From assembly GCF_002101335.1 (NCBI RefSeq), contig NZ_CP020773.1, positions 1,984,001 through 2,048,000 of the forward strand: a stretch of 64,000 nt of DNA. The letters are read 5' to 3'. The notes beneath the pieces were generated by a model. That model searched no databases. It had not been told where the DNA came from and worked only from the letters and a program-made list of their open reading frames with translations. The position numbers were made by a program, and so were the translations under genes. Position 1 is the first letter of the stretch. Each line of letters begins with the position of its first letter. Positions 14,789 to 31,524 of the stretch are shown in pieces. This DNA is from Staphylococcus lutrae. Lineage in GTDB: Bacteria > Bacillota > Bacilli > Staphylococcales > Staphylococcaceae.

Positions 14789-15015
14789 AGTGAATTGCTC
14801 CTAACAGGTATTTTACATATGATTATCTATTTTAATGCAAGTGTTTGTTACATTTCAATCATTTCAATCATTTTGATGTATTTTGTACGGGGTATTTGTT
14901 TTCTATGAGGATGGAAGATGTTCATGTATAATAAAATTGATATGAATGGGAGGTATCGTGAATGGTTTTTACCTCTCAATATTCAATTATGTAAGATATG
15001 AGGATGGTGGATGTT

Positions 15016-16671
15016 TTGAAAGCAGAATGGATATCTCATCTTGATGAAAGTTTAGTCAGACCGTTTTATGAAGCGCAAACAAAAGAAGAGCAAGACGCAG
15101 GTTTTGAAGAAGTATTATCTTTTGGCACAGCAGGGATTCGAAGTACATTAGGTTTAGGTCCGGGGCGTTTAAATAAATTTACTGTGCGCAAAGTCGCATT
15201 AGGTTTAGCGCAATACTTAACCGAAACATCTAAGGAAGCTTCGGTTGTCATTCACTATGATACACGTTTCTTGTCGTCGGAATTTGCACAAGAGATGGCT
15301 TGTGTGTTAGCGACAGAAGGCGTTAAGGTCATATTAGCAGATCGTTATAGATCGACGCCTGAACTTTCTTTTGCAGTTCGGTATTTAAACGCTACAGCGG
15401 GTGTCATGATTACAGCGAGTCATAACCCGAGTCATTATAACGGTATTAAAGTTTATGGGGCAGATGGGGGTCAGTTACTACCGGCTGCATCAGAAGATTT
15501 AAGCCGCTGTATTCATGCGATTCAGTCTCCTTTAACGATTGAGGCGAAAGCGGTGGAAGTCCTACGCGATGAAGCGATGATTACGCCATTAGCTTCAGAA
15601 GTGACAGACGCATATAAAGCAGGCGTTAAGTCATTAGTCGGCCCCATTGTATCACAAGGAGAAAAAGTGATCTTAACGAGTCTACATGGGACGAGTTTAC
15701 CTCTAGGCGCTACACTGCTTACGGAGCTAGGGTTTGAAGATTTCGTGATTGAAAAAACACAATCTCAACCGGATGGTCGTTTTCCTACTGTTAAAAGTGC
15801 CAATCCTGAAGAAGAAGCGGCATTTGAATATGGTATACGACTGGCTGAAAAAGAAGACGCATCATTAATTATTGCAACAGATCCAGATGCAGATCGTTTT
15901 GGTTTTGTCGAAAGATACGAGGATGGAACAACACGCTATTTTAATGGGAATGAAATTGGTTTGATCTTGATGAAATTAAGATATCAAACATTGCAACCAA
16001 CAAGTGAGACTTTTTATATCATTAAATCTATTGTTACAGGTGCGTTAAGCGAAGTATTGGCAAAAAGGTTGAACATTGATGTGGTCAATGTCTTAACGGG
16101 TTTTAAATATATTTCCGAGCAACTTCAACAACGTCAAAAAGATGCGTCGCAACTCGTATTGGCATTTGAAGAGAGTCATGGTTATCTCGCCAAAGATTTA
16201 TCGCGTGATAAAGACGCCATCCAATTTATCCCGTTACTTGTGAAATATAAACAAATGTTAGCGCAAAATGGTTTAACATTTAAAGCGGTATTAGAAGACA
16301 TTTACAAACAAATTGGCCAATATCAAGATGTGACGTTATCACCCACATATTCTGGTCAAGCTGGGAGACAGAAAATCGATGCTTTGATGTCACATTTTAG
16401 AAATGATACGAGTGACACCTTGTTAGGATTAAAAGTATTAACAAAAGAAGATTATTTGTTCCAGCAAACGACACATTTTCAAGACGATTCGATGACACCG
16501 ATTGACTTACCGAAAGCGGATGTGATTCGATATACATTTGATGAAGGATTTATAGCTTTGCGACCGTCTGGTACGGAGCCGAAAATTAAAGTATACTTTT
16601 CATTAAATGTCCCTGATTTTGAAGCGCTTGTTGACGAATTTAAGTCGACATACTTAAACGACGCAGTATAG
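15016..16671 (+). CDS. pgcA: Phosphoglucomutase / phosphosugar mutase (PgcA-like)
   Basis: Alpha-phosphohexomutase of about 551 residues that interconverts glucose-6-P and glucose-1-P, the entry to UDP-glucose. Visible are the phosphoserine loop ITASHNPSHYNG (Ser about 134), the metal loop DPDADRFGF near 294, the sugar loop FEESHGY near 385 and the phosphate-binding loop RPSGTEPKIK near 516. I prefer the TTG at 15016 (MKAEWISHLDE) because GGTGG lies five bases upstream and the length then fits the family; in-frame ATGs at 14998 and 15004 have no good site. First gene of the glycopolymer cluster, divergent from the LCP gene, with its own terminator. Confidence 0.88.
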   Translation: MKAEWISHLDESLVRPFYEAQTKEEQDAGFEEVLSFGTAGIRSTLGLGPGRLNKFTVRKVALGLAQYLTETSKEASVVIHYDTRFLSSEFAQEMACVLATEGVKVILADRYRSTPELSFAVRYLNATAGVMITASHNPSHYNGIKVYGADGGQLLPAASEDLSRCIHAIQSPLTIEAKAVEVLRDEAMITPLASEVTDAYKAGVKSLVGPIVSQGEKVILTSLHGTSLPLGATLLTELGFEDFVIEKTQSQPDGRFPTVKSANPEEEAAFEYGIRLAEKEDASLIIATDPDADRFGFVERYEDGTTRYFNGNEIGLILMKLRYQTLQPTSETFYIIKSIVTGALSEVLAKRLNIDVVNVLTGFKYISEQLQQRQKDASQLVLAFEESHGYLAKDLSRDKDAIQFIPLLVKYKQMLAQNGLTFKAVLEDIYKQIGQYQDVTLSPTYSGQAGRQKIDALMSHFRNDTSDTLLGLKVLTKEDYLFQQTTHFQDDSMTPIDLPKADVIRYTFDEGFIALRPSGTEPKIKVYFSLNVPDFEALVDEFKSTYLNDAV

Positions 16672-16744
16672 ACTGTGCTGAGCAATGAAGCGCGCTTGTG
16701 TCATTGAAAACGCGCTACCCCAGTGAATCACTACATTATAAATG

Positions 16745-16789
16745 AAAAGACGTACGCCTAAGATGCTTTTAGGTGTACGTCTTTTCTTT
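16745..16789 (+). terminator. Terminator after pgcA
   Basis: A 16-bp stem (AAAAGACGTACGCCTA / TAGGTGTACGTCTTTT) with one G-U pair, a 9-base loop and a T-rich tail. It separates pgcA from the long glycosyltransferase operon. Confidence 0.88.
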
Positions 16790-17374
16790 GCCATCAAGCA
16801 GGATCAACCGGCATACAATGTGTGAAAATCAATTCGAGTATCGTGGCATTCCTCCTGTAATCGTTTATACATCTCCAAAAACAAAAATGATGGATTTAAC
16901 TTTGAGTGCACATGAAAGTCGAGGATGTCACAATTTTTGCCTGAGTAAGGCAACGCGCGTGCTAAAGTGCCATATCTATATCCATATGCACAGCGCTGCA
17001 TGTGATTTGCATCCTTTAGTCATAACTGATATGGATCCCCCCCTTTTTTTCCTATTTCTTCAATCGAGAAAAATCATAAGATTGAACTCAAAGACGTTTG
17101 ACAGAATTCATTTTTGATCACCAGTGATTTCTAATCTCAACACTTATTTTTTAATACATTCAAGTTGAAATGTAAATATAAAGTAAAGAATGTTTATTAA
17201 TTGTTTATTCAATTATAAAATTTAGTAAAAGAAATGATTATTTACTATTTTTAATTGAAATTAATCTTCATTTACTTAAAAATTAATATAGAATTAATAA
17301 TCAACAAACAAAAGCATCACGCTAATGCATGCTTTAGAAAACACTCAATTTCAAGGGAAGAAAGGTGTATGAAT
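16790..17374. other. Long AT-rich leader of the glycopolymer operon
   Basis: About 580 bases with no well-supported gene. The first half carries a minus-strand open frame (about 16804-17016, ending RIDFHTLYAG) that reads like protein but lacks a start context, so it may be a decayed gene. The second half (17150-17345) is very AT-rich and probably holds the operon promoter, with several poor -35/-10 candidates that I cannot rank. A 7-bp hairpin (AAAGCAT / ATGCTTT, 17311-17335) lies just before the ribosome-binding site. Confidence 0.5.
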
Positions 17375-18655
17375 GTGAAATTAACAACTGTCGGATTAGG
17401 TTATATTGGATTACCTACTTCAATTATGTTTGCCAAGCATGGGGTTGACGTTTTAGGTGTGGATATTAATAGTGAAACGGTAGAAAGTTTAAATAACGGA
17501 TGTATACATATCGAGGAACCAGGTCTTCAAGAAGCATTTGATGACGTGCGTGCGACGGGTCATTTCAAAGCTTCATTGACGCCAGCAGAAGCGGATGTGT
17601 TTATTATTGCGGTGCCGACACCGAACAATGATGATGAATATGAATCTTGTGATATTTCCATCGTAATGCAGGCAACAGCAAGTATTGTCCCTTATTTAAA
17701 AAAAGGCAATACGGTCATTGTGGAATCGACGATTGCACCAAGAACCATTGATGATCATGTTAAACCATTTCTTGAACATCAGGGTTATACAATAGGTGAA
17801 GATTTGTTTTTAGTTCATTGTCCAGAACGCGTCCTTCCAGGCAAGATTTTAGAAGAACTGGTATACAACAACCGCATTATCGGTGGGGTGACACCTGCAT
17901 GTGTTGATGCTGGCAAAAAGGTTTATCAAACTTTTGTAAAAGGTGACATGATTGAAACGAATGCACGTACTGCGGAAATGAGTAAATTGATGGAGAATAC
18001 ATACCGCGATTTGAATATTGCGCTCGCTAATGAAATCGCAAAGATAAGTGATGATTTACACATCAATGTCTTAGATGTGATTCAAATGGCGAATCAACAT
18101 CCGCGTGTGAATATTCATCAACCAGGTCCAGGGGTGGGCGGCCATTGCTTAGCAGTAGATCCATATTTCATCATTGCAAAATCTCCTGAACTTTCGCCTT
18201 TAATTCAAACAGGACGTCAAGTCAATCGTTCTATGCCGGCATATGTCGTAGAGAAGGTTAAACAAATACTGCAAGATTTGAACGCAGTAAAGGTGACGGT
18301 ATTCGGTTTGACGTATAAAGGCGATGTTGATGATATTCGTGAGTCGCCAGCCTTTGATATTTACGAATTATTACATGAACACCTTGATATAGAAATTGTT
18401 GCTTTCGACCCACATGTGAAACTCGATTTTGTTGAGAAAGATATGGAGAAAGCTGTGCATGATGCTTCTCTCGTCCTTGTACTGAGTGACCATTCTGAAT
18501 TTAAAAAATTAACAGATCGCCATTTTAAAGGGATGCGACACCCCATCATTTTCGATACAAAAAATGTCATGTCTCAGTCATTTGATACCGTTGATTATTA
18601 CAATTATGGCAATTTGTATACGTATCATACACCAGCGAAAAATCCACAAAGATAG
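17375..18655 (+). CDS. UDP-N-acetyl-D-mannosamine dehydrogenase (Cap5O/WecC-like)
   Basis: NAD-dependent enzyme of about 426 residues that oxidises UDP-ManNAc to UDP-ManNAcA. The N-terminal Rossmann motif is GLGYIGLPTSIMFAKHGVDV. The middle has STIAPRT, HCPERVLPGKI, NRIIGGV and LMENTYRDLNIALANE. The catalytic Cys (about 258) is in GPGVGGHCLAVDPYF, and the C-terminal domain has FGLTYKGDVDDIRESPA. It closely resembles S. aureus Cap5O as I remember that sequence. I chose GTG at 17375 because AAAGG lies nine bases upstream; an ATG six bases earlier is too close to that site. First gene of the long operon. No UDP-GlcNAc 2-epimerase is present here. Confidence 0.9.
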   Translation: MKLTTVGLGYIGLPTSIMFAKHGVDVLGVDINSETVESLNNGCIHIEEPGLQEAFDDVRATGHFKASLTPAEADVFIIAVPTPNNDDEYESCDISIVMQATASIVPYLKKGNTVIVESTIAPRTIDDHVKPFLEHQGYTIGEDLFLVHCPERVLPGKILEELVYNNRIIGGVTPACVDAGKKVYQTFVKGDMIETNARTAEMSKLMENTYRDLNIALANEIAKISDDLHINVLDVIQMANQHPRVNIHQPGPGVGGHCLAVDPYFIIAKSPELSPLIQTGRQVNRSMPAYVVEKVKQILQDLNAVKVTVFGLTYKGDVDDIRESPAFDIYELLHEHLDIEIVAFDPHVKLDFVEKDMEKAVHDASLVLVLSDHSEFKKLTDRHFKGMRHPIIFDTKNVMSQSFDTVDYYNYGNLYTYHTPAKNPQR

Positions 18656-18667
18656 TAGGTTTTATGC

Positions 18668-19480
18668 GTGAAAGTCTTATTTTTGCTATTAAAGGAACAG
18701 ATTGAGAACGGACCTAAAATTTTCCAACTTGCGTTCTACAATATGAAAAGCCAATATTCAAACCATTATCTCGGCGTCTTTTGGAATATTTTACAACCCA
18801 TGATGCAAGTGGGTGTTTATTATCTCATTTTTGGATTGGGCTTGAGAGGTGGGGGAGACCGTTTAGTGGATGGCGTCCCATTTATTATGCATTTGATATC
18901 AGGACTGTTTCCGTGGCTGTTCATCTCACAAAGCATAAATTCAGGAGCGAATGCCATTCAAGCCAATTTAGGACTTGTGACTAAAATGAAATTCCCTTCA
19001 TCGGTATTATTGTCGATTTCGTTTACAAATACATTATTCAATTTGATTTTTATGACGAGTATTTTATTTGTGACCTCTCTCCTACAAGGGACAGTCGATT
19101 TTTGGAAATATTTCCTATTTATTTATTTTATTATAGCGGCATTTCCAGCTATTTTCGGTATTTCATTATTGATGAGTTCGTTAGTGATTGTCGTAAGAGA
19201 TACAAAGAATATTTTGCAAAATATATTGAGGCTCGGCTTTTTTATGACCCCTATTTTTTGGAGTATGAATAGCGCTCAACCTATTTTGAGAATGATCACA
19301 AGACTGAATCCTTTTACTTATTTAGTAGAGGTCTATCGCAGTGCTTTTGTACATCAACATCCCATTCTCTATGGCACATGGTCAGATCATTTTTATTATT
19401 GGATGTTCACACTATTCGTACTCATTTTAGGGGCAATGGTACACCAAAGATTTAAGGACCGATTACTTGATTTTCTATAA
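18668..19480 (+). CDS. TagG-like ABC-2 permease for glycopolymer export
   Basis: Membrane subunit of 270 residues with about six hydrophobic segments, of the ABC-2 type that exports lipid-linked polysaccharides or teichoic acids. Typical are the N-terminal YNMKSQYSNHYLGVFWNILQP, ISGLFPWLFISQSIN, MKFPSSVLLS, VVRDTKNILQ and FFMTPIFWSM, then NPFTYLVEVYRS. It starts with GTG 12 bases after the dehydrogenase stop. Its likely ATPase partner is the TagH-like protein at 28075, seven genes downstream; TagG and TagH are usually adjacent. Confidence 0.9.
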   Translation: MKVLFLLLKEQIENGPKIFQLAFYNMKSQYSNHYLGVFWNILQPMMQVGVYYLIFGLGLRGGGDRLVDGVPFIMHLISGLFPWLFISQSINSGANAIQANLGLVTKMKFPSSVLLSISFTNTLFNLIFMTSILFVTSLLQGTVDFWKYFLFIYFIIAAFPAIFGISLLMSSLVIVVRDTKNILQNILRLGFFMTPIFWSMNSAQPILRMITRLNPFTYLVEVYRSAFVHQHPILYGTWSDHFYYWMFTLFVLILGAMVHQRFKDRLLDFL

Positions 19481-19499
19481 CGTCAGAAGAGGGGTTACT

Positions 19500-20693
19500 A
19501 TGAAAAGGAAAATATTGATCATCAGCCAAAATTTTTATCCTGAGTTAGGTTCAGCTGCTAACCGTATGAAAAAGATTTTTGAGCAGCTTAATCAACGGGG
19601 GTTTTCACCCATCGTGCTGACAACTGAACCTTCATATCCCAACAAAACATTATTCAAAAACCGTGCTTATTTTGATAGTGAATCGTTGAATGCGTTAGAA
19701 GGGACTCAGATTCATCGCATACGGATGAAATTCGATAAGCAGCACCCCAATTTATGTTATCGCTTGTTGTATTATTTAGAGCTGATGATTAAAGTGAAGG
19801 CCTATCTTAAACAGAAGATTGCTTTTGACAATATATACGTCACAAGTCCAAATATTTTTCTCGCTTGGGCCACATTGTTTTTCAAAACAGATCGTAAAGC
19901 GAAATATTTTTTAGAAATAAGAGACTTGTGGCCGGATAGCTTTTTAGGGGTAGGTGCACTTCAGCTTAAATGGACATTCCCACTCCTTAAATTTTTGGAA
20001 AAGAAGATGTATCAATCTGCCGATGAAATTGTCGTTAATAATCCCTATTTCGAACAACATATTAAAGCAATGATAGGTGAAACGTCATCTTTTATTTATT
20101 TACCCAATGCCTTTACGAAAGATGAGGTTCAAGTTCAACAAAAAAGACCCTATTTTTCAGTGATTTATAGTGGGAATTTAGGTTATGCGCAAAATGTTGA
20201 ACAACTGATTGATATTGCACGCCAACTTAATCAAGCACATATTCATTTTACAGTAATGATTTATGGCGTCCATGCCCACCAATTTCGCCAAGTCGTTAAA
20301 AATGAGGGATTATCGTATGTGCACCTTATTCCACCTATGAAGCGCACGCCTTGTTTAAAGATGATTTCAGAACATCATGTGTCACTTTCCATTTTAAAAC
20401 CTACAGGTGTATTTATGAACGTGATGCCTGGCAAAGTGATGGATAGTATTTGTTGCGGGACGCCTGTTGTGTGTAACTTAGGTGCGCCTGTTGATCAACT
20501 CATTCAACAGTATGGTGTGGGCTATGCTAAAGCACATGCTTCAACAGAAGACATCATCGCTTATATAAAGCAGTTGAAAAATGATCATGAGACCTTGACG
20601 CAAACGATTTCACATACAGTAAAATTGCGCGATGAAGCATTGATGTGGGAAAGGAATATTGAGAAATTAATCGCACGATTGAGGGGGAATTAG
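19500..20693 (+). CDS. Glycosyltransferase family 4
   Basis: GT-B glycosyltransferase of 397 residues. The N-terminal donor/acceptor domain opens with ILIISQNFYPELGSAANRM, similar to WbuB/WcaI-type enzymes of polysaccharide loci. The C-terminal nucleotide-sugar domain begins near FSVIYSGNLGYAQNV and contains PGKVMDSICCGTPVVCN, where a family-4 enzyme carries its second conserved acidic region. The chosen ATG follows GAGGGG by about six bases. Its sugar and linkage cannot be predicted. It directly precedes a gene of unknown function with no gap. Confidence 0.83.
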   Translation: MKRKILIISQNFYPELGSAANRMKKIFEQLNQRGFSPIVLTTEPSYPNKTLFKNRAYFDSESLNALEGTQIHRIRMKFDKQHPNLCYRLLYYLELMIKVKAYLKQKIAFDNIYVTSPNIFLAWATLFFKTDRKAKYFLEIRDLWPDSFLGVGALQLKWTFPLLKFLEKKMYQSADEIVVNNPYFEQHIKAMIGETSSFIYLPNAFTKDEVQVQQKRPYFSVIYSGNLGYAQNVEQLIDIARQLNQAHIHFTVMIYGVHAHQFRQVVKNEGLSYVHLIPPMKRTPCLKMISEHHVSLSILKPTGVFMNVMPGKVMDSICCGTPVVCNLGAPVDQLIQQYGVGYAKAHASTEDIIAYIKQLKNDHETLTQTISHTVKLRDEALMWERNIEKLIARLRGN

Positions 20694-21266
20694 ATGGATG
20701 CACAAGTGGAAGATTTTTTACGTAATACCTCATATACGGGGGCTTATGTGGCTGTTTTTGCCGATCAAAGTGCACTGTATTCAGACGAAGCATGTACCCA
20801 AAAGGTCGTCATAAATGACGTCGCAAGCACGATTTGTCTCGTACGTTATGAGTTTGAAAAGGGACAGAAACTCGCAATTCAGGACAAAACAGAGACGTAT
20901 TTTGTACATAAACAGCAGGTGGAACTCCTTCTATATGTGGATTGGCAATCTTCACAAAATCAGATTCAATTGGCGCACTTCGATAAGGAATGGAAAACAT
21001 TTCAACTGGATACACCAATGCATGAGAAGGTGTGTCCGCATCAAAATAGTTGGCTACATATCGCCCAGCATTTAAATGTGTTACAAGCAGTGCAAGAGCG
21101 ACAACATCGTTTTATCGTACAAAAAGTGTTAGGTGATGCGATTGAAAAACGTCATTTTGTAGCACAACTCATTGAACAGAGAGAGACGTTAAAGACACGC
21201 TATTTAAAGTTACGACATTCAAAATTAGGAAAAATTCAGATTAAGTTATGGGAGCGACGCTCATGA
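20694..21266 (+). CDS. Protein of unknown function in glycopolymer cluster (190 aa)
   Basis: I do not recognise this protein. It has 190 residues, no signal peptide and no membrane helix. The first 110 residues look like a compact alternating-strand domain (AYVAVFADQSALYSD, FVHKQQVELLLYVDW); the last 80 are helical and rich in Gln, Arg and Lys, ending in a basic amphipathic tail (HSKLGKIQIKLWERRS). It begins on the base after the preceding stop, with GAGGGGG as ribosome-binding site, and its stop overlaps the next ATG by four bases. A role as partner of the flanking glycosyltransferases is possible. Confidence 0.75.
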   Translation: MDAQVEDFLRNTSYTGAYVAVFADQSALYSDEACTQKVVINDVASTICLVRYEFEKGQKLAIQDKTETYFVHKQQVELLLYVDWQSSQNQIQLAHFDKEWKTFQLDTPMHEKVCPHQNSWLHIAQHLNVLQAVQERQHRFIVQKVLGDAIEKRHFVAQLIEQRETLKTRYLKLRHSKLGKIQIKLWERRS

Positions 21267-23842
21267 ATTTTAAAGCGATCAAACAATTATTTTTTGGCTC
21301 TCCTAAGCCATTTCAGATGACAAGAGAACCGATTCCTTTTGATGAAACAGAGACGCCAGCACTTGAACATTTAGCAGAATTGTTGGATATCGAGCCGAGT
21401 AAAGCATTTTTTGAAATCAGTGAAACCCCGTATTTAAAACCTTTCGTAGATTACTTAAAAACGTATCACGAAGTTGGAAGAGGCGATCAAAATGCGGATT
21501 ACGAAGCGTTATTAAAGCAGAGTGAACGCACGCAATCGCGTCGCACGTTACCGCTGAAGGTCGGTATTGTATCGGATCTATTTTTATATCGTGCATTAGA
21601 GGGGGCATGTGAACTTGAGTATATCAATCAACCCCAGTGCATGACACAATATGATTTCGTCATTATTGCTTCAACATGGGAAGGGGTAGACGGTTATTGG
21701 AGAGGTAATACGCAGATGCATAGTACGCGATTTCAAGAGTTACAACAATTAATGGCGGACTGTCAATCTCGAAACATTCCGGTCGTTTTTTTTAATAAGG
21801 AAGATCCTGTTAATTTTGAAGTGTTTCAAATGCATGCACAATGTGCGGACGTTGTCATCACGACAGAAGTGGCATTAGTAGAAAAATATAAAGCATTGCT
21901 TGGTCATCAACGTGTGAAAGCGATGCATTTCCCGGTCAATCCTGAATGGCATCATCCCATCGGTACTCACAGAGCGGCGACAAAACGGGATGTCGTCTTT
22001 GCAGGTTCATGGCTGAATAAGTATGAAGAACGTACAAACGATATGATGATGCTTTTTGACGGTGCTTTGGAGAATGGGTTAGATTTGACAATATTTGATC
22101 GTAATTTATGGCACAATCGAACGAAATATCAATATCCAGCGCGTTATTTACCTTATATTGCTGCACCACTCACACATGCACATACTTTAACGATGTATCG
22201 GACATTTCCTATTGTGCTTAATCTTAACACGGTGAAATATTCAAAGAGTATGTGTGCAAATCGTATCTTTGAACAGCAAGCGATGGGGAGTTTTTTAGTT
22301 TCAAATTACAATGCCTTTGTAAATATGACTTTTCCACAAATACAGATTATTTTTGAATTGGCGGATATGGCCAAAGTGAAAAAGCTGGATGCGATGCTGA
22401 TGAATCGTGCACGGGCAATCGGGACACAGAAGATGATGCTCTCGATGACCCATGTCCATTGGTTAAATGAAATGGCACAATTTCTTGGTCGATCTACGCC
22501 AAATCTCTCTAACCCATGGGTCAGCGTGATTATTTCGGACGATGATGCGTTGGCATCTGACATGTTCCAAGCACAAACCTATCAACATAAAAAAAGTGTC
22601 TCTCGTATCGCTGATGTGGATACGCCATTTTATACGTACTTCAGTTCGCAACATCAGTATGCACCTGAGTATCTTGCGGATTTAATGGCGGCAACGGTCT
22701 ATACTCAAAGCCCATTCATAACCAAAATGGCACAAGGTTATCGCTATGTAGATACATTTGAGGAACGAGAACTGACTTTATTTCAACGTGATTCAGTCGA
22801 CGAGACCGACAGGGAGCAGCAGGGGTTTGCATTAGATTTGACCTTTGTAGATGATATGCCACAGCAAAGTGTTGTACATCATCAGCAACCGGCATTGAGT
22901 GTGATTGTACCGGTTCATAATAATGGGACACATTTAGAACATAAGTGTTTGCGTTCGATGATTAGCCACACCTTATTTCCGCAACTTGAAATCATACTTG
23001 TCGATGATGGATCAACCGATGATTATACGAAACGACTCATTGCTTTATATTGCCAGTGGTATGCCAATATTCGTGTCATTGAATTAGCAAAAGCATCAGG
23101 TAGTGCATCAACACCGCGAAATGTGGGAATAGAACGTGCACAAGCTCCACTGATTGCTTTTTTAGATCCTGATAATGAGTGGGTAGGAGAAGGGATGACA
23201 CAGCTGTTCAATGAGATGCGCGCACATCCAGAAATCGATGTGGTCGTTGGCAACATGATTAAAGCAGACGATAATCAAACACAAGTGCATCGTTATTATG
23301 ATGCTTTCGTTGCAGTTGCACAAGCGGATAGAACAGAGGATACACGAACATTGCTCCATAATATGAAACTTAAAACTGCGAGCATTCAAGCCTTGATTAC
23401 GAAAAAATCATTGTTACAACGCCATAAGATTCGAATGGTACCTGGTGCGCTTGGACAGGATTCGCTCTTCTTTTTACAATTGATGCATTATGCACGTGTT
23501 GTAAAAGTCGTCAATCACAATATTCATGTATATTATGCAGCAAACACGAACTCTATGACCAATCAAATCACAGCCGAGTTTTTTAATAAATACGAGCGAT
23601 TAGAGGAAGAAAAAATCAACTTTTTGACAAAACAAGGTTATATAGACACGTATATGAAATATCGCTTTAATTACTATATCTATCATTGGTATATCGCACG
23701 ATTGAAACGTTCAACACTTCATAGTGAAGAAACGATTCAAGCATTTCTACGTATTGTTGAACGCTATGCATCATTTAAACGACCGCACGATGCAACGTTA
23801 TTAAAAGAAATAGAACAATTAAAAAGAAAGGTGAAATCATGA
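21263..23842 (+). CDS. Two-domain glycosyltransferase (CgeB-like GT-B + GT2)
   Basis: An 859-residue protein joining two glycosyltransferase folds. Residues about 95-420 resemble the CgeB/YkvP-type GT-B domain (RDVVFAGSWLNKYEERTNDM; KSMCANRIFEQQAMGSFLVS). Residues about 543-760 are a GT2 GT-A domain: PALSVIVPVHNNG, the nucleotide-binding LVDDGSTDDY near 577, TPRNVGIERA and the metal-binding AFLDPDNEW near 634. A helical, basic C-terminus follows. ATG at 21263 is chosen because GGGAG lies eight bases upstream and it forms an ATGA overlap with the previous stop. It may add two different sugars or a repeat unit. Confidence 0.83.
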   Translation: MNFKAIKQLFFGSPKPFQMTREPIPFDETETPALEHLAELLDIEPSKAFFEISETPYLKPFVDYLKTYHEVGRGDQNADYEALLKQSERTQSRRTLPLKVGIVSDLFLYRALEGACELEYINQPQCMTQYDFVIIASTWEGVDGYWRGNTQMHSTRFQELQQLMADCQSRNIPVVFFNKEDPVNFEVFQMHAQCADVVITTEVALVEKYKALLGHQRVKAMHFPVNPEWHHPIGTHRAATKRDVVFAGSWLNKYEERTNDMMMLFDGALENGLDLTIFDRNLWHNRTKYQYPARYLPYIAAPLTHAHTLTMYRTFPIVLNLNTVKYSKSMCANRIFEQQAMGSFLVSNYNAFVNMTFPQIQIIFELADMAKVKKLDAMLMNRARAIGTQKMMLSMTHVHWLNEMAQFLGRSTPNLSNPWVSVIISDDDALASDMFQAQTYQHKKSVSRIADVDTPFYTYFSSQHQYAPEYLADLMAATVYTQSPFITKMAQGYRYVDTFEERELTLFQRDSVDETDREQQGFALDLTFVDDMPQQSVVHHQQPALSVIVPVHNNGTHLEHKCLRSMISHTLFPQLEIILVDDGSTDDYTKRLIALYCQWYANIRVIELAKASGSASTPRNVGIERAQAPLIAFLDPDNEWVGEGMTQLFNEMRAHPEIDVVVGNMIKADDNQTQVHRYYDAFVAVAQADRTEDTRTLLHNMKLKTASIQALITKKSLLQRHKIRMVPGALGQDSLFFLQLMHYARVVKVVNHNIHVYYAANTNSMTNQITAEFFNKYERLEEEKINFLTKQGYIDTYMKYRFNYYIYHWYIARLKRSTLHSEETIQAFLRIVERYASFKRPHDATLLKEIEQLKRKVKS

Positions 23843-24987
23843 GCTATTTATTGATTACGAACACCTATCCTAATCAAGAAAAAATTTATGCGAATGCCTT
23901 TTTACATCGCCGAGTGAAAGGCTATCAACAACATCAAATAGAAATGACGGTTGTTGTATTTACAACAAAAATCAAACGAGATGCATACTATGACGGCGTA
24001 AAAGTGATGTACATGGATGAAGCACAGTTATATAGCCATTTGAAAAATCATCACTACGACAAGTTATTATTTCACTTTATTAACTACAAGATGTTTCGTG
24101 CGATTGAACGATTAGCGGAAAAACCACCCATTGTTGTATGGCTACATGGATTTGAAGCAGAAGCATGGTACACGCGCTATTATAACTACTTATCATCCGC
24201 AACAGCGTTGAAAGCACAGTTACAAAAAAAAGAGACACATTATGAGTATCAGAAAGCCTTTTTGAAAGATTTAATGACGCGTAAAGATTTAGAAATTCAA
24301 TTTGTTTACATCTCAGAACGATTTAAAGTGCTATATGTAGATCCTTTTGTTGGTGTCACTCCGGAACGGTATCACATTATTCCTAATATTGTAGATGCTC
24401 AAATTTTTCCATATACGCCTAAACAAGTGGAAGATCGCTTTCGTATCGTGTCCATTCGACCTTTCACAGCGAAAAACTATGCCAATGATTTAACGGTAGA
24501 AGTGATTCAACAATTAGCAAAACGGCGGTATTTCAAAAAATTGTCATTTTCAATCTATGGTGAAGGTCCGTTATTTGAAAAACTGACGGCGCCATTGAAA
24601 AAATATCGTAACGTTCAACTGCATCAAAAATTTGTTCCTCAACAAGACATCACTCATATTCATCAACAACATGGCATTTATTTAGGTCCTTCACGCCATG
24701 ATTCACAGGGAGTTTCATTAAATGAAGCCATGAGTTCAGGTCTTGTACCAATATCGAATGCGATTGGAGGTATCCCAGACTTTATTGAGCATGGTATTTC
24801 TGGTTATTTAGCACCGCGAAATGATGTTGAACGCATGGCGCTTTACATCGATGAACTGATCCAAAATCCTGATGTCTTTCTGCAGATGAGTCAAAATGCT
24901 GCATCAATGATTCAACGTAAGACGGGGGCGGATGTTGTTATTCAAAAAGAATTAGAGGTGATCACAGATGGCAAGTATCGATTATAA
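23839..24987 (+). CDS. Glycosyltransferase family 4
   Basis: GT-B enzyme of 382 residues. The N-terminus reads LLITNTYPNQEKIYANAF, and PIVVWLHGFEAEAWY lies near residue 95. The C-terminal domain has RIVSIRPFTAKNYANDL, FSIYGEGPLFEKL and the family-4 donor-binding region HDSQGVSLNEAMSSGLVP near 288-305, followed by SNAIGGIPDFIEHGISGYL. It is coupled to the upstream gene by an ATGA overlap and overlaps the next start by 20 bases. Confidence 0.87.
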   Translation: MSYLLITNTYPNQEKIYANAFLHRRVKGYQQHQIEMTVVVFTTKIKRDAYYDGVKVMYMDEAQLYSHLKNHHYDKLLFHFINYKMFRAIERLAEKPPIVVWLHGFEAEAWYTRYYNYLSSATALKAQLQKKETHYEYQKAFLKDLMTRKDLEIQFVYISERFKVLYVDPFVGVTPERYHIIPNIVDAQIFPYTPKQVEDRFRIVSIRPFTAKNYANDLTVEVIQQLAKRRYFKKLSFSIYGEGPLFEKLTAPLKKYRNVQLHQKFVPQQDITHIHQQHGIYLGPSRHDSQGVSLNEAMSSGLVPISNAIGGIPDFIEHGISGYLAPRNDVERMALYIDELIQNPDVFLQMSQNAASMIQRKTGADVVIQKELEVITDGKYRL

Positions 24988-25327
24988 ACGTGCATATGAA
25001 TATTTAGAGTCCCAATTAGAAGATATCATGCTAGAAACAGCGACATTGTTAGATCATAATCCAGCAACACTTAGAATCGATGAAATCTTGACACATCAGG
25101 AAGAAGAAGGGGTGATAGATGTCATCGTCTGTAGTTCTGGTGAAAAGATGACATATGCGCTCTATATTTATAAAAAAGGTGAATCGGTAGCAACGGAGAA
25201 AATCATGTATCAACATCAAAATGTATTTCACTTGACTTTAGAACCTGGGAAATATCGTATTAAAGCATTTGTGAAGCAAAATCAGCAACAGAAAGTTTCA
25301 GATACAGCACAAATTAAAGTCTATTGA
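24968..25327 (+). CDS. Small protein of unknown function, Ig-like fold candidate
   Basis: A 119-residue protein that I do not recognise. A helical N-terminus (about 1-30, YLESQLEDIMLETATLL) precedes a strand-rich domain. Its MTYALYIYKKGE and the closing LTLEPGKYRIKAFVKQN resemble the edges of a Y_Y_Y or fibronectin-like beta sandwich. There is no signal peptide, so it probably acts inside the cell. The start lies 20 bases inside the preceding glycosyltransferase gene. Confidence 0.7.
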   Translation: MASIDYKRAYEYLESQLEDIMLETATLLDHNPATLRIDEILTHQEEEGVIDVIVCSSGEKMTYALYIYKKGESVATEKIMYQHQNVFHLTLEPGKYRIKAFVKQNQQQKVSDTAQIKVY

Positions 25328-25340
25328 GGGGGACGCTGAC

Positions 25341-26057
25341 ATGGTTCAAAATGAATATTTTCTTACGCGTGACCTTAATAATGATGAAACAATGTTACGA
25401 ATTGATTTTAAAGGTAAAGATATTGACGTACGACCAGCAAATGAATTTTCATCAATAATGAAGACGATACGCAAGATTGAACTCCATTTTTATTATCCAA
25501 TTCACGCTCAGCAACTCGCTTTATATCATCAAATTGTCACTCAAATTTCTACACAAACAATCATAAAAATTCAGTTGCACGCTATCCAAATTGATGAAAG
25601 TAAATTGCTAGCCGTTTTAGAACCACTCGAAAAGCGCTTTACTATGAATATTTATCATTTTCAAAATGGACAATGTACGGTGATGTATTTTGCTTTAGAT
25701 CGTGTGTCTTATGATGAAAGTCATAATCAGCGATTGATGTCACAACTACTTATAAATTGGGCAGATGAAAAAATGAAACCTGTCCTGAATGTCATGCAGT
25801 TAAAGCAAGAAATTCTCAAATTAAATAAAGATTATGAAATGTTATATGAAACGTATCGACATACGCACGAACGGATGCAATATGCTTTTCGAACACTACA
25901 TCAATTTAAACGAAGTGCTTGGAAATATAAGAAAAAGTATCTTGCACATGAATCATGGATTCGACGATTAGAACAAATTTCATACTATCAAAAAAGACTG
26001 AATCGGACGAATATAAAAAAAGGCGTGAAGTTGATTTGGAAGAAGGTGAAATCATGA
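25341..26057 (+). CDS. Protein of unknown function with helical C-terminus
   Basis: A 238-residue protein of unknown function. Residues 1-130 appear mixed alpha/beta. From about 145 it is strongly helical and likely coiled-coil (MQLKQEILKLNKDYEMLYET), ending in a highly basic segment (NIKKGVKLIWKKVKS) that could touch membrane lipid phosphates. GAGGGGG lies upstream of the ATG at 25341. Its last four bases form an ATGA overlap with the next gene, and its 3' end shares 15 identical bases with the 3' end of the fused glycosyltransferase gene. Confidence 0.72.
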   Translation: MVQNEYFLTRDLNNDETMLRIDFKGKDIDVRPANEFSSIMKTIRKIELHFYYPIHAQQLALYHQIVTQISTQTIIKIQLHAIQIDESKLLAVLEPLEKRFTMNIYHFQNGQCTVMYFALDRVSYDESHNQRLMSQLLINWADEKMKPVLNVMQLKQEILKLNKDYEMLYETYRHTHERMQYAFRTLHQFKRSAWKYKKKYLAHESWIRRLEQISYYQKRLNRTNIKKGVKLIWKKVKS

Positions 26058-28054
26058 CAAAACGTGAGATGCAATATACGCAAGAACAAATTGAAGCAAT
26101 GCACCAACCGATACCAAAACAAAGTCATTTATTAATTAATGAGATTCGACATACGCAAAATATTCCATATACTCAAGCATTGAAAAAAGGTATTGCATGT
26201 ATTTGGTTTGTCCCTCAACAATTTGACCTTGAGACGATTGCACGATTACACCGTACTTATGATCAGCTCATTCTCGTTTTTCAGTGGGAGGACGGCCTTT
26301 CAAAACTGATGCAATCTCCATTGCGCCATGAAAACCATCTCTTTTCTGTATTGGATCAGCGTCATTTTAATGTATCATTTGCATTTGCGATACAACAAAT
26401 TGAAGTGTCGCATGTGGTGCTCACATTAGAATCAGAGACGCCACTCACAAGTCTCCCGATTGCGAACCATGAAGTGGCATCGCATGTGTTATATCGACTC
26501 GCAAATGATAAAATTTACCCAACGGCATTGATGAAAGGTTTGAATTTGTATGAGCCAATTAATGCTTTCGTGAAATGTTATATCGATGAGGTATGTTATC
26601 GTACGCCAGGTATTTCAGAAATACGATTATTTTCGGAATATGTGCAAACAAAAGGCGTGAAGATTAAGCATCGACAAGCTGTTTATGAAGCGTTAGAGAC
26701 CATCGAGGCGATTTATAATGTAACAGATGCTACGGATATGTCGTGTTATCCGGAAGTGAACGCGTTAATTCGTCAAATACGTCGATTTCTTGACACACAA
26801 GATCCAGAAACAGTAAGGCAGATCAAGCAAGACATCTATGAGAAAATGCCGATTTTTCATTACCATTTATTGAATGAAGGGCATGCAGAAACGCTCGTCA
26901 TTGCGTACTGTTTTCCACCGTACATTGACACGAGTGGAAATGTCATGGCTAAGCGTATTCGAGATAAAGGGGAAATTGTGGATATCATTTCGAATGACAT
27001 GTCACGAATTCGGCAGAAAGATGAAAAACTGAATACTTTAGCAGCGCATTTGGTCGACACACATTATTTACTCGATGCAAAACAAGCCTTTTCAAGTTGG
27101 GAAAGTATTGCTGGTTTTACCGAGCAAGGTTTAGAGGTCCTTGCACAGCATCCTAAAATGTATCGTCATTTATATTCAAGAGCGATGTTTCCACAATCTC
27201 ATTTTTTAGCTTTTGAAATTAAATTAGAGCAACCAGAGATTTATTGGAGAGCAGAGTTTTCAGACCCTTTACATACCACTGTGACGAGTGATTTAAGGTA
27301 TGCGCCAATTCAAGATGCGTCTTATATTGACAGCGTGAAGCAACGACTCCATCGAGAGTGGCGTCCTCTCGTTGATGATAATGTATTCAATGTATGTGAA
27401 TTGTTAGCGCTCAGTCATGCGGACGAACTGATTTTTACGAATGAACATCAGCTCAAATATATGATTGAACGTTTTGATGAAAAAATGAAGCAATCGATTC
27501 AGTCACGTGCTGTTATTTCAAGACACCCGATTCCACGACCTCACGACTATAAGAAAGTAAATACGCATTATCCACTAGATCCGGATTTGATTCATTTAGG
27601 TTATTTTGGCAACTTCTATGCGACGCGTGGATTTAATGAAATTGAACTTGTATGTAAATATTTGGAAGCAAAAGGGGAAACGGCGTTTAAAATTCATTGT
27701 TTTACAAATATTCGTGGCAATATTAAAAATATATATCGTAACAGTGATTTTAAAGATTATATCGTCTTACATCCTTTGGTCGGTTATTTTGAATTTTTAA
27801 ATATCACTCAAAAATTTGACGGATTGCTATTATTTGATGCCCATACAACAGGAATTAAAACCATTAATCCTTATGTGCCATCCAAATTAAGTGATTATAA
27901 AGGAAGTGGCAAAAAGGTGTGGGCGTTTGTAGAAGAAGGGAGTACGATGGCACAAGATAACGATATCATTCACACACTTATGGCAGATTTCGATCACTAT
28001 ATTGATGGTTTTCAGCAAATTAAAGCGGCTGTAGTGAGATTGAAGCGGGATTAA
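26054..28054 (+). CDS. Large putative GT-B glycosyltransferase of unclear family
   Basis: A 666-residue protein. The last 370 residues look like a GT-B enzyme: LVIAYCFPPYIDTSGNVMAK (near 280) is the kind of N-terminal motif seen in GT4/GT1 enzymes, LIHLGYFGNFYATRGFNEI (near 515) starts a second Rossmann-type domain, and PYVPSKLSDYKGSGKKVWAF takes the place of the usual donor-binding segment. Residues 1-270 are an extra domain that I cannot assign. The start was chosen by the ATGA overlap and AAGGTG upstream; a longer frame reads back into the previous gene. Confidence 0.7.
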   Translation: MTKREMQYTQEQIEAMHQPIPKQSHLLINEIRHTQNIPYTQALKKGIACIWFVPQQFDLETIARLHRTYDQLILVFQWEDGLSKLMQSPLRHENHLFSVLDQRHFNVSFAFAIQQIEVSHVVLTLESETPLTSLPIANHEVASHVLYRLANDKIYPTALMKGLNLYEPINAFVKCYIDEVCYRTPGISEIRLFSEYVQTKGVKIKHRQAVYEALETIEAIYNVTDATDMSCYPEVNALIRQIRRFLDTQDPETVRQIKQDIYEKMPIFHYHLLNEGHAETLVIAYCFPPYIDTSGNVMAKRIRDKGEIVDIISNDMSRIRQKDEKLNTLAAHLVDTHYLLDAKQAFSSWESIAGFTEQGLEVLAQHPKMYRHLYSRAMFPQSHFLAFEIKLEQPEIYWRAEFSDPLHTTVTSDLRYAPIQDASYIDSVKQRLHREWRPLVDDNVFNVCELLALSHADELIFTNEHQLKYMIERFDEKMKQSIQSRAVISRHPIPRPHDYKKVNTHYPLDPDLIHLGYFGNFYATRGFNEIELVCKYLEAKGETAFKIHCFTNIRGNIKNIYRNSDFKDYIVLHPLVGYFEFLNITQKFDGLLLFDAHTTGIKTINPYVPSKLSDYKGSGKKVWAFVEEGSTMAQDNDIIHTLMADFDHYIDGFQQIKAAVVRLKRD

Positions 28055-28074
28055 GTGAAAAATGAGGTGTTCTG

Positions 28075-28986
28075 ATGACATATAAAGTAAAAGTAGATCA
28101 CGTATCTAAAATTTATGACTTAAATAAAAGTAAAGTTAACAAAATACTGGCACTGTTATCCTTTGGCTACTTTTATCGACCGAAACCTTATTATGCATTA
28201 TACAATATTTCGTTCGAAGTTGAACCAGGAATGTCTGTGGGTTTGATAGGATTAAATGGTTCAGGTAAATCGACATTATCCAATATTTTAGCTGAGGTGT
28301 TACAACCTACAAAAGGGTCTGTCGACATTAATGGCCAATCGTCATTGATTGCGATTTCAGCCGGCTTAAATAATGATTTTACAGGTGAAGAAAATATTCG
28401 GTATAAATGTTTGATGCATGGCATGTCTTTAAAAGAAATTAATCACGTTTTTGATGACATCGTCGCTTTTTCTGAACTTGATGATTTTATTTATCAACCG
28501 ATTAAAAGTTATTCAAGTGGAATGAAAGCACGGCTTGGATTTTCAATTGCGATTCACACGAACCCGGATGTCCTTATTGTAGATGAAGCATTATCAGTTG
28601 GAGATGAAACGTTTGCAAATAAGTGTATTGCAAAAATGAAAGCTTTGCAGGAAGAAGGAAAAACAATCTTTTTTGTGTCGCATTCTGCTGCACAAATTAA
28701 AAACATGTGTGATCGCGCGATTTGGATTCATTATGGAGAAATGGTTGCGTACGGTGAAGTGAACGAAGTCGTTCAACGTTATAATACGTTAATTAGAGGG
28801 TTTAAAGCACGTGATAAAAAAGGGCAGCTGGCTTATAAAAAGAAAATGTTGACATTACAACAACAGCGAAATGATGCCATTGAACAACATGAATGGGATG
28901 TTGACGATAAAAGAAGCCTTTTTTCATTACTCGGAAGCGGCGTGTTATTTCTCTTCGCCTTGTTATGGCAAATCGGTGTGCTTTAA
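28075..28986 (+). CDS. TagH-like ABC transporter ATPase with C-terminal membrane anchor
   Basis: ATP-binding subunit of 303 residues for polysaccharide or teichoic-acid export. Walker A is GLNGSGKST (about 59-67), the ABC signature is YSSGMKARLGF near 142, Walker B is VLIVDEAL near 163 and the switch His is in FFVSHSAAQ. The insertion between beta strands (NKILALLSFGYFYRPKPYYAL) is typical of the TagH/Wzt group. After the ATPase core, a charged helical stretch leads to a single hydrophobic segment at about 284-301. It should pair with the permease at 18668. Confidence 0.9.
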   Translation: MTYKVKVDHVSKIYDLNKSKVNKILALLSFGYFYRPKPYYALYNISFEVEPGMSVGLIGLNGSGKSTLSNILAEVLQPTKGSVDINGQSSLIAISAGLNNDFTGEENIRYKCLMHGMSLKEINHVFDDIVAFSELDDFIYQPIKSYSSGMKARLGFSIAIHTNPDVLIVDEALSVGDETFANKCIAKMKALQEEGKTIFFVSHSAAQIKNMCDRAIWIHYGEMVAYGEVNEVVQRYNTLIRGFKARDKKGQLAYKKKMLTLQQQRNDAIEQHEWDVDDKRSLFSLLGSGVLFLFALLWQIGVL

Positions 28987-29038
28987 TATTGATGTAAAAA
29001 GGAATCGTTAGTGTCTATGAAAAGAAGGAGGGGCGAAA

Positions 29039-30370
29039 ATGAAAAAAGTCGCCATGTTTGTGTGGAATCATTTTACAAACGATGCACGCGTCAATCGTGA
29101 ATGTACGGCACTGGCAGACTCGGGATATGATGTTGATTTAATTGCGATTAATGACCTTAAAAATAAAGATATTGACGCTTTTGAGCAGCGAGAACCGCAT
29201 TTTAGAGTCCATCGCGTGAAACGTTATCCGGTGGTCATACAGGCTTATGCTGATCATGGTAAGTATTTTGTTGCCATCATTGCAGGCGTGTCATTTGTGA
29301 TAGCAGTAGGTTTGTTTTATATCAGTTTAAAATATTTATTGAGCTATATGATGATGTTACTGATCACGATGTTGATGATAAAAGTAAAAAAAATACGAAA
29401 GTGGGTTGTCAATGGTTCGATTATTGCACGTATGATTGTTAAAGGTTATGGATTAAATGCGGATATATACCATGCCAATGATTTGAATACGTTACCTCAA
29501 GGCATTGTTTGTTCAAAGTTGCGATTACATCCTAAGCCACTTGTTTATGATAGTCATGAAGTGCAATCAGATCGAACGGGCTACAACTCTGAACGAATTA
29601 AAAAAATCGAGCGCTTTTTATTACGTTTTGTAGATACAATGATTGTAGAGAATCATACGCGAGCGCAGTACAATAAAGAGATTTATGGGTTTTATCCGCA
29701 ACCGGTATATAATTATTCAATGCTTTACGATATTGAAAAACAACCATACAGTCATTTGCGTGAGAAACTGGGTATTAATGCAGATGAAAAAATTCTACTT
29801 TATCAAGGTGGATTGCAGCAAGGCAGAGGATTAGATAAGCTGATTGAAGCAATGCCAATGATAGACGAAGGTGTGTTGTTATTTGTAGGTGGAGGGAAAT
29901 TAACGGATGTATTAAAAGCACAAGCCGAACAATCGGAAGCACGGGATCGCATTTATTTCTTAGACAAAGTGCCTTTTGAAGTGTTACCAAGTATTACCCG
30001 AGAAGCCTATGTGGGTTTTCAAGTGCTTCAAAATATTTGTTTTAATCATTATTCAGCGAGTTCGAACAAACTGTTTGAATACATCATGGCCCACGTTCCT
30101 GTTATTGCATGTAATTTTCCTGAAATTAAACGTGTGGTAGAAGAGGAAGAAGTCGGTATTGTCACAGACACACATGAGAGTCGTAATATTGCTCAAGCTG
30201 TGAATCAACTGCTTCATGACGACAAACAATATCAACATTATCGCGCACAGACACGACACGCTAAACAAATTTATAATTGGCAAAATGAAAAGCAGCGCTT
30301 CTTGAACGTTTACGATACATTAGATGGTAAAGTTTCTTTTATAGGGAGAATAAATTCTAAAATGAAATAA
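29039..30370 (+). CDS. Glycosyltransferase family 4 with internal membrane hairpin
   Basis: GT-B enzyme of 443 residues. The N-terminus is VAMFVWNHFTNDARVNRE. A strongly hydrophobic stretch at about 77-115 probably forms two membrane segments inside the N-terminal domain. PLVYDSHEVQSDRTGY near 180 and the C-terminal LLYQGGLQQGRGLDKLIEAM, LLFVGGGKL and SSNKLFEYIMAHVPVIA are typical of family 4. AAGGAGGGG precedes the ATG. It is the last gene of the cluster; no strong terminator was seen in 30371-30470. Confidence 0.84.
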   Translation: MKKVAMFVWNHFTNDARVNRECTALADSGYDVDLIAINDLKNKDIDAFEQREPHFRVHRVKRYPVVIQAYADHGKYFVAIIAGVSFVIAVGLFYISLKYLLSYMMMLLITMLMIKVKKIRKWVVNGSIIARMIVKGYGLNADIYHANDLNTLPQGIVCSKLRLHPKPLVYDSHEVQSDRTGYNSERIKKIERFLLRFVDTMIVENHTRAQYNKEIYGFYPQPVYNYSMLYDIEKQPYSHLREKLGINADEKILLYQGGLQQGRGLDKLIEAMPMIDEGVLLFVGGGKLTDVLKAQAEQSEARDRIYFLDKVPFEVLPSITREAYVGFQVLQNICFNHYSASSNKLFEYIMAHVPVIACNFPEIKRVVEEEEVGIVTDTHESRNIAQAVNQLLHDDKQYQHYRAQTRHAKQIYNWQNEKQRFLNVYDTLDGKVSFIGRINSKMK

Positions 30371-31233: not shown

Positions 31234-31524
31234 TTAAATATGAGAACCATGCCCACCTTGCATAACCCAATATGTTCCGATGACTGTAATAAGTGTAATA
31301 ATAATCGCGAAGATAACTTTTGCAAGTTGAACGCGACCATCTTTACCTTCAGTTAAATGCATGAACATTAAGAGTTGTAAGAAGGCTTGGATAAACGCAA
31401 AACCAAAAATGATTGTTACTTTAGCGTTAAAAGTCAATGATGTATATAAAGTCACGAATACAGCGAGTAACGTCAAGATGATTGAGGCAATAAAGCCTAT
31501 CGTATGTTTTACAATTGTGTTCAT
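31234..31524 (-). CDS. qoxD: QoxD, quinol oxidase subunit IV
   Basis: Small subunit (96 residues, three hydrophobic segments) of the aa3/bo3-type menaquinol oxidase; it helps assembly of the core. The sequence [19 protein letters not shown], then [16 protein letters not shown], is typical of the family. It overlaps the qoxC stop by four bases and ends the qoxABCD operon. Confidence 0.95.

What the first reader, a model, noticed from the sequence alone, without database searches (positions are those of the whole stretch)
15016..30370. Glycopolymer biosynthesis and export cluster in place of the usual gene between lcpB and qox
Seen: about 15 kb with a phosphoglucomutase, a UDP-ManNAc dehydrogenase, a TagG-like permease, four recognisable glycosyltransferases plus one of unclear family, three unassigned proteins and a TagH-like ATPase. 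Known: in S. aureus, as I remember it, fmtA lies between the LCP gene and qox. Inference: an accessory wall glycopolymer (teichuronic-acid-like or capsule-like) exported by an ABC route. No initiating phosphoglycosyltransferase, polymerase or flippase is present, so it must borrow a lipid-linked primer, perhaps that of wall teichoic acid.
Basis: partly seen in the sequence, partly recalled or inferred. Interest (0 to 1): 0.8.

Follow-up and report, generated by a model that had tools for sequence, protein, structure and literature searches.

The report
Swappable staphylococcal wall-polymer gene locus
This stretch of a Staphylococcus chromosome holds an 11-gene set that probably builds and exports an acidic sugar polymer for the cell wall; relatives carry different versions at the same spot, while most staphylococci lack it, so it looks like an old and interchangeable surface-coat locus.

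Summary
In detail: a tight 11-gene operon (17369-30370, +) between an LCP gene and qox encodes a Cap5O-like UDP-ManNAc dehydrogenase, a second TagG/TagH-type exporter, five glycosyltransferase proteins (the 'unclear' one has a GT-B fold) and three small proteins. The phosphoglucomutase gene is a conserved neighbour, found near LCP in 41 of 69 staphylococcal genomes without the cluster. A FmtA-like gene is absent here but present elsewhere in this genome. No PF02397 initiator exists genome-wide, supporting a borrowed TagO primer. The cluster is not a recent accessory: its marker gt4C is in 24 of 24 genomes of four other genera of the family (six only partly) but 15 of 84 Staphylococcus genomes, implying ancestral presence and loss. 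Those 15 carry at least three cassette types at this site; trees show horizontal replacement of interior genes, exporter included, between species groups, including that of S. pseudintermedius. Best explanation: an ABC-exported, ManNAcA-containing, teichuronic-acid-like wall polymer whose structure is changed by cassette swapping. Polymer chemistry, primer and ligase are inferred, not measured. Ten searches of an open-access library found no description of this locus.

The parts
13592..14788 (-). LCP-family wall-polymer ligase (left neighbour; likely but unproven ligase)
   Evidence: PF03816 E 5e-46; found beside DUF2538 in 84 of 84 Staphylococcus genomes
14998..16671 (+). phosphoglucomutase/phosphomannomutase-family gene; conserved neighbour, not cluster-specific
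   Evidence: PF02878-80; in the fetched stretch beside LCP in 41 of 69 genomes without the cluster and 15 of 15 with it
17254..17368 (+). conserved stretch upstream of the operon (begins with the ATTGAA block; likely control region)
   Evidence: ATTGAA invariant in the 14 genomes aligned, all three cassette types; position
17369..18655 (+). udpDH: UDP-ManNAc dehydrogenase, likely makes UDP-ManNAcA
   Evidence: best solved relative S. aureus Cap5O, 715 bits over residues 4-419; GPGVGGHC motif at 253
18668..19480 (+). tagG-like ABC export permease (second pair in this genome)
   Evidence: best solved relative TarG 6JBH, E 5e-40; 32% identical to the genome's own housekeeping TagG
19500..20693 (+). 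gt4A: GT4 glycosyltransferase (WcaI-like)
   Evidence: PF00534; part of the core shared by all three cassette types
20694..21266 (+). unk190: small beta domain plus long C-terminal helix
   Evidence: no Pfam hit; AF2 pLDDT 79.9; no PDB match at E<=0.001
21263..23842 (+). gtAB: two-domain glycosyltransferase (GT-B-like then GT2), candidate chain polymerase
   Evidence: PF00535 E 8.6e-20, PF13524 E 1.6e-4
23839..24987 (+). gt4B: GT4 glycosyltransferase
   Evidence: PF00534 E 7e-20
24968..25327 (+). yyy: 119-aa possible beta-sandwich protein
   Evidence: weak Y_Y_Y hit E 4.6e-4, below the curated cut-off
25341..26057 (+). unk238: unassigned protein with a conserved basic C-terminal part
   Evidence: no Pfam hit; alignment A4
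26054..28054 (+). gtX: GT-B glycosyltransferase, GT4-like by structure, with an apparently decayed N-terminal GT2-like part
28075..28986 (+). tagH-like ABC export ATPase with one C-terminal TM-like segment
   Evidence: TagH/TarH best solved relatives; 43% to the genome's own TagH; hydrophobic window at 280
29039..30370 (+). gt4C: GT4 glycosyltransferase with two TM-like segments; right-hand gene common to all three cassette types
   Evidence: PF00534 E 3.6e-19; in 15 of 84 Staphylococcus and 24 of 24 other family genomes, six of the 24 partly

Best explanation
The operon makes a wall-anchored, ManNAcA-containing polysaccharide (teichuronic-acid-like) by the ABC-transporter-dependent route. Well supported by sequence: UDP-ManNAc is oxidised to UDP-ManNAcA; GT4/GT2-type enzymes with no recognisable membrane polymerase act in the cytoplasm; a dedicated TagGH-type transporter moves the product. 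Inferred: the chain starts on the TagO primer (undecaprenyl-PP-GlcNAc, possibly with TagA's ManNAc), shared with wall teichoic acid; gt4A and gt4C, common to all types, build the adaptor region; gtAB and gtX with gt4B extend the type-specific chain; the neighbouring LCP enzyme or another of the genome's three attaches it to peptidoglycan. The site is a swap locus: the interior genes, with their own exporter, are replaced by recombination inside conserved flanks, giving at least three types. Types II and III carry an asparagine-synthase-like protein that may amidate the uronic acid. The locus is ancestral to the family and was lost in most Staphylococcus.
For: Dehydrogenase nearest to Cap5O. 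TagG/TagH relatives, distinct from the canonical tagA-tagH-tagG-tagB-tagD locus elsewhere in the genome. No PF02397; two PF00953; one TagA; one epimerase over the family cut-off. gtX fold. Three types and their counts. S. cornubiensis (I) versus G022 (II): DUF2538 98.7, lcp 87, pgm 93.5, qoxC 99, gt4C 90.5 but tagG 59, gt4A 45, gtAB 38, tagH 70%. Trees: backbone (lcp+pgm) and gt4C put G015 with the agnetis group, and G019 with the three intermedius-group type II genomes (backbone 100) or beside G022 (gt4C 99); the cassette tree unites G015 with G022/G068/G051 at 100. Family distribution and linkage to LCP-DUF2538 in other genera.
Against: No chemistry was measured. NCBIfam equivalog cut-offs for UDP-ManNAc dehydrogenase (409.6 of 459) and TagH (278.5 of 320) are not reached. 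No gene shows that the primer is TagO's; an unknown initiator is possible. LCP is present in 84 of 84 Staphylococcus genomes whether or not the cluster is, so its link is positional only. In the 10 Salinicoccus/Jeotgalicoccus loci with the LCP block no udpDH or gtAB match passed the threshold in the fetched stretch, so those loci may make something else. The asparagine-synthase-like assignment is weak. Six of the 24 non-Staphylococcus gt4C matches are partial (45-48%) and two of the 24 carry a stop. In the udpDH tree several nodes have low support.
Confidence: 0.62

Rival explanations
1. The cluster makes a glycan that is attached to wall teichoic acid (as the teichuronic-acid-like chain of Streptomyces griseus is attached to ribitol phosphate) rather than directly to peptidoglycan.
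For: The genome has a WTA locus and five TagB/TagF-type proteins. Precedent in PMC13274773 (passages seen).
Against: A dedicated second TagGH pair that is swapped together with the GTs points to an independently exported chain.
Confidence: 0.15
2. It is a capsule or loosely held exopolysaccharide rather than a wall-linked polymer.
For: Cap5O-like dehydrogenase; type-specific middle with common ends, as in S. aureus cap5/cap8 (title of the 1997 paper seen in a reference list).
Against: No Wzx/Wzy-like genes recognised in the cluster and no PF02397 initiator in the genome; TagGH-type export; LCP gene next door.
Confidence: 0.15
3. The product glycosylates surface proteins.
For: gt4B has weak similarity to SdgA/SdgB-type enzymes (41 and 29 bits against cut-offs of 800); an LCP enzyme is linked to protein glycosylation in A. 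oris (GspA, passage).
Against: ABC exporter plus lipid-primer logic; no acceptor protein in the locus.
Confidence: 0.05

Closest known systems
ABC-dependent wall polysaccharides (L. lactis polyrhamnan, S. mutans Rgp)
   Same: TagO/RgpG-type initiation, cytoplasmic chain synthesis, ABC export, LCP attachment (PMC7831098 passages)
   Different: Uronic-acid dehydrogenase and no rhamnose genes recognised; transporter is TagGH-like; cassettes are swapped at the site
S. aureus CP5/CP8 capsule
   Same: ManNAcA as a sugar (CP5 repeat), made with a Cap5O-type dehydrogenase; [quoted passage not shown]
   Different: CP5 is TagO-independent and Wzy-dependent (PMC7831098 passages); none of that machinery is recognised in this cluster
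B. subtilis teichuronic acid (Tua)
   Same: Acidic phosphate-free wall polymer as likely product; GTs weakly like TuaC/TuaG/TuaH, far below cut-offs
   Different: Tua has an initiator, polymerase and exporter of other kinds and uses GlcA (PMC11841062); here ABC export and ManNAcA
Staphylococcal surface carbohydrate (Ssc) of S. aureus
   Same: Proposed minor phosphate-free wall polymer
   Different: Five genes sscA-E with own initiator, polymerase and MATE-like exporter (PMC11841062, outline and parts 1-3 of 7 read)
Micrococcus luteus teichuronic acid
   Same: Glc/ManNAcA polymer (composition recalled) on a GlcNAc phosphodiester link (title of Gassner 1990 in a reference list)
   Different: Genes not compared here; repeat unit here unknown

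Membership tests
TagGH-type polysaccharide ABC exporter | ABC-2 permease and ATPase whose best solved relatives are TarG and TagH/TarH | tested here: met
   6JBH TarG; 7DD0 TagH and 6JBH TarH
Canonical WTA exporter TagGH | NCBIfam TagH equivalog cut-off | tested here: not met
   278.5 of 320 bits; the canonical pair lies elsewhere, so this is not filed as the WTA exporter
UDP-ManNAc dehydrogenase | nucleotide-sugar dehydrogenase subfamily with the Cys-containing motif | tested here: met
   TIGR03026 432.7 of 189.8 bits; GPGVGGHC at 253
UDP-ManNAc dehydrogenase | NCBIfam PRK11064 equivalog cut-off | tested here: not met
   409.6 of 459 bits; nearest solved relative is Cap5O, 715 bits. I say it works like Cap5O, not that it is a PRK11064 equivalog
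CP5/CP8-type capsule (Wzy-dependent) | PF02397-type initiator | tested here: not met
   0 hits genome-wide; the search rings in 9 of 14 control genomes
CP5/CP8-type capsule (Wzy-dependent) | Wzx/Wzy in the locus | tested here: not met
   No such family among the cluster proteins; the rest of the genome was not searched for them
Teichuronic acid (broad sense) | uronic acid in a phosphate-free repeat | not testable with these tools
   Only the precursor enzyme is seen
TagO-primed wall glycopolymer | one PNPT besides the MraY-like one in the genome | tested here: met
   Two PF00953 proteins; which is MraY and which TagO is my assignment from general knowledge
TagO-primed wall glycopolymer | polymer dependent on TagO | not testable with these tools
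   needs tunicamycin or tagO depletion
GT4 glycosyltransferase (gtX) | GT-B fold like that of GT4 enzymes | tested here: met
GT4 glycosyltransferase (gtX) | Pfam GT4 sequence profile match | tested here: not met
   0 Pfam families at E<=0.01; GT4-like by structure only

The most novel reading that the evidence does not exclude
The LCP-qox interval is a serotype-like switch locus of the S. hyicus-intermedius clade: recombination replaces whole synthesis-plus-exporter cassettes between fixed end genes and so changes a ManNAcA wall polymer, acidic in type I and amidated in types II/III. It would be a main phage-receptor and antigen determinant of S. pseudintermedius and its kin, and a relic of an ancestral family polymer whose LCP ligase S. 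aureus still carries as LcpB.
Probability: 0.35. Interest if true: 0.78.

Novelty: new variant of a known kind. Interest (0 to 1): 0.6.

Why it matters
If right, staphylococci outside the aureus/epidermidis lines, S. pseudintermedius among them (its relative of the type II marker stands for 884 member sequences), have a variable wall polymer that the S. aureus-centred picture of the staphylococcal envelope misses. It would be a candidate receptor for phages and a typing target, and it makes two questions testable: what LcpB first evolved to attach, and how an exporter co-evolves with the polymer it carries.

Tried and rejected
Rejected: pgm as a cluster gene. Rejected: simple replacement of fmtA (a FmtA-like gene, 50% identical to the query, is elsewhere in the genome; whether it is the ortholog was not tested). 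Rejected: Ssc or Tua identity (gene content).

Led nowhere: Rfam scan of 7000-37000, 0 matches; promoter/terminator scan, no more than shuffles (53 promoter-like sites versus 62.8 expected, 7 terminator-like versus 9.9); PDB sequence search with the type II 617-aa family, 0 hits at E<=0.1; Foldseek with unk190, no match at E<=0.001 (second-ranked is an IF2-TagH model, E 0.06, not relied on); direct comparison of the gtX N-terminus with GT2, not significant (E 0.056, probability 1%; only the stepwise route gives E 2.9e-8 and 2e-6).

Literature: ten searches of an open-access library listed no paper that I recognised as describing this locus; I opened six papers, mostly as passages, and subscription papers are not held, so this is weak evidence of novelty. 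The S. pseudintermedius 'capsule' statement in PMC13404703 (passages) names no locus. Macrococcus cap loci (PMC6008420, passages) are described there as homologous to cap5/cap8. S. chromogenes genomics (PMC12724294, passages) mentions capBCAD and cap genes, not this cluster.
Full report
WHAT IS THERE. Between an LCP gene (13592-14788, -) and qox (31234-35210, -) are a phosphoglucomutase-family gene, then after 697 bases eleven + strand genes from 17369 to 30370 with gaps of -20 to +52 bases, then a PepSY-domain protein gene.

PRIMER. The genome has no PF02397 protein, two PF00953 proteins (taken as MraY and TagO), one TagA, one UDP-GlcNAc 2-epimerase-type protein over the curated cut-off and one match below it, five TagB/TagF-type proteins and three LCP proteins. 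With no recognisable initiator of its own the cluster most simply uses TagO's undecaprenyl-PP-GlcNAc. With no Wzy- or Wzx-like protein recognised in the cluster, chains should be finished in the cytoplasm and exported by the dedicated TagGH-type pair, as modelled for lactococcal polyrhamnan (PMC7831098, passages).

DISTRIBUTION. In 84 Staphylococcus genomes (one per species): DUF2538, the left border marker, 84 of 84; gtX 9 of 84; the type II marker (617 aa) strongly in 5 (G015, G022, G037 split over two contigs, G051, G068), weakly in G042 (26%) and marginally in G040; gt4C 15 of 84, which is 9 type I + 5 type II + 1 type III (G042). I fetched the border region of all 84. Of the 69 without the cluster, 44 have a FmtA-like gene between LCP and qox and 7 more within 5 kb of LCP with qox not reached; for pgm the numbers are 33 and 8. 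Four of the 69 (G013, G020, G060, G079) end at an edge too early to tell. Of the 15 with the cluster, 0 have FmtA and 15 have pgm in the fetched stretches; G016, G019 and G037 are split between contigs. A FmtA-like gene occurs somewhere in 66 of 84 genomes and in 11 of these 15, including this one.

ANCESTRY. gt4C at E<=1e-60 is in 39 of 108 family genomes: 15 of 84 Staphylococcus and 24 of 24 in the four other genera, six of these 24 only partly and at 45-48%, two of the 24 with a stop. In named loci the cluster genes sit beside LCP in three Macrococcus loci (L021, L025, L027; in L009, Macrococcoides, no LCP was in the fetched stretch). In 10 of 12 Salinicoccus/Jeotgalicoccus loci (not L016 and L024) a GNAT-DUF2538-LCP block like the window's lies between the cluster core (tagG, gt4B, gtX, tagH) and gt4C; in those ten no udpDH or gtAB match passed the threshold in the stretch. 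Four of five Bacillaceae loci (L022, L023, L026, L028; L029 only weakly) keep gt4A, gt4C, udpDH, tagG and tagH together. So the locus is old and was lost in most Staphylococcus; this is parsimony, not proof.

SWAPPING. Type II (G022, G068, G051, G015) keeps udpDH at the left and gt4C at the right but has other interior genes (308-318, 853, 617-623 and 271-272 aa; the 853-aa protein is a distant gtAB, about 36%) and divergent tagG, gt4A and tagH; type III (G042) has a third set and another order. The type II marker is named in S. delphini, S. ursi, S. pseudintermedius (884 member sequences), S. intermedius (partial) and Mammaliicoccus vitulinus; G068 has the contig length of the S. ursi record. 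S. cornubiensis (type I) and G022 (type II) share 87-100% in the flanking genes compared and 90.5% in gt4C but 38-70% in tagG, gt4A, gtAB and tagH (udpDH 84%). G015 shares 75-90% with G022 in those four genes but 71% in lcp, 62% in pgm and 70% in gt4C; the slowly changing DUF2538 and qox genes share 85-93%. With S. agnetis, G015 shares 81% in lcp, 69% in pgm and 84% in gt4C but 38-70% in those four genes. Maximum-likelihood trees of 14 genomes (G037 left out) agree: backbone (lcp+pgm) and gt4C put G015 with the agnetis group, and G019 with the three intermedius-group type II genomes (backbone 100) or beside G022 (gt4C 99), while the cassette tree (tagG, tagH, gt4A, gtAB) unites all four type II genomes at 100 and leaves G019 beside the window. 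Within type I the cassette groups match the backbone groups, so type I is probably inherited vertically in this clade and type II spread sideways. The udpDH tree has several weak nodes.

CHEMISTRY OF THE TYPES. The 617-aa family has weak but repeated matches to asparagine-synthase-like enzymes (Asn_synthase in 5 of 13 members, best 0.011; TIGR01536 in 1 of 13 at 2.5e-5; macrolactam cyclase in 4 of 13; the HUP domain PF03054 in 11 of 13) and no PDB sequence match, so amidation of the uronic acid is a guess. A 271-aa possible esterase (weak hits) is also found in type II. For type III the 644-aa relative has only marginal hits and 26% identity.

CONTROL REGION. A block upstream of udpDH, beginning at 17254, with ATTGAA invariant in the 14 genomes aligned (all three types), suggests shared control; no Rfam family matches in 7000-37000.

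LIMITS. No sugar, linkage or ligase was measured; one genome per species gives no count within species; the ligase and primer assignments are inferences; that lcpB (SA0908) of S. aureus lies next to fmtA is recalled (the gene number is in PMC7831098), and S. aureus LcpB is reported to affect wall teichoic acid (same passages), so it is not idle there; the literature searched is open-access only.

Noticed in passing
L102:8076-9413 (G022); also in G068 and G015: In these three type II genomes an oppositely oriented 445-aa gene lies between pgm and udpDH; the G022 copy is a CHAP/SH3 wall hydrolase.
   Followed up: partly
L150:10611-13886 (G022); ORFs of the same sizes in L092 (G019): Between the PepSY-protein gene and the nucleoside hydrolase an MFS gene and a 681-aa UvrD/DEAD-like NTPase gene are inserted, possibly a mobile or defence module.
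   Followed up: no
L087 (G057): In this type I genome udpDH, gt4A, gtAB and gt4B are split and yyy is shortened while tagG, gtX, tagH and gt4C are whole: sequencing error or early decay. Not mended.
   Followed up: no
L096-L101 and L148 (G044, G070, G074, G073, G043, G002, G054): Seven genomes have qox in the opposite orientation beside LCP and no cluster (read in full for G044).
   Followed up: partly
window 26054-26860: Apparent stepwise decay of a GT2 domain at the N-terminus of gtX, from Bacillaceae-type through Macrococcus/Salinicoccus-type to staphylococcal proteins.
   Followed up: partly
L009-L021: These Macrococcoides, Salinicoccus, Jeotgalicoccus and Macrococcus loci hold a second, more distant gtX-like gene near the first.
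   Followed up: no
L050:4262-10788 (C1:930000-948000): Two large TagF-domain proteins, by eye one joined to a GT4-like and one to a GT2-like part, beside an epimerase-like gene: perhaps WTA polymer and side-chain genes.
   Followed up: no
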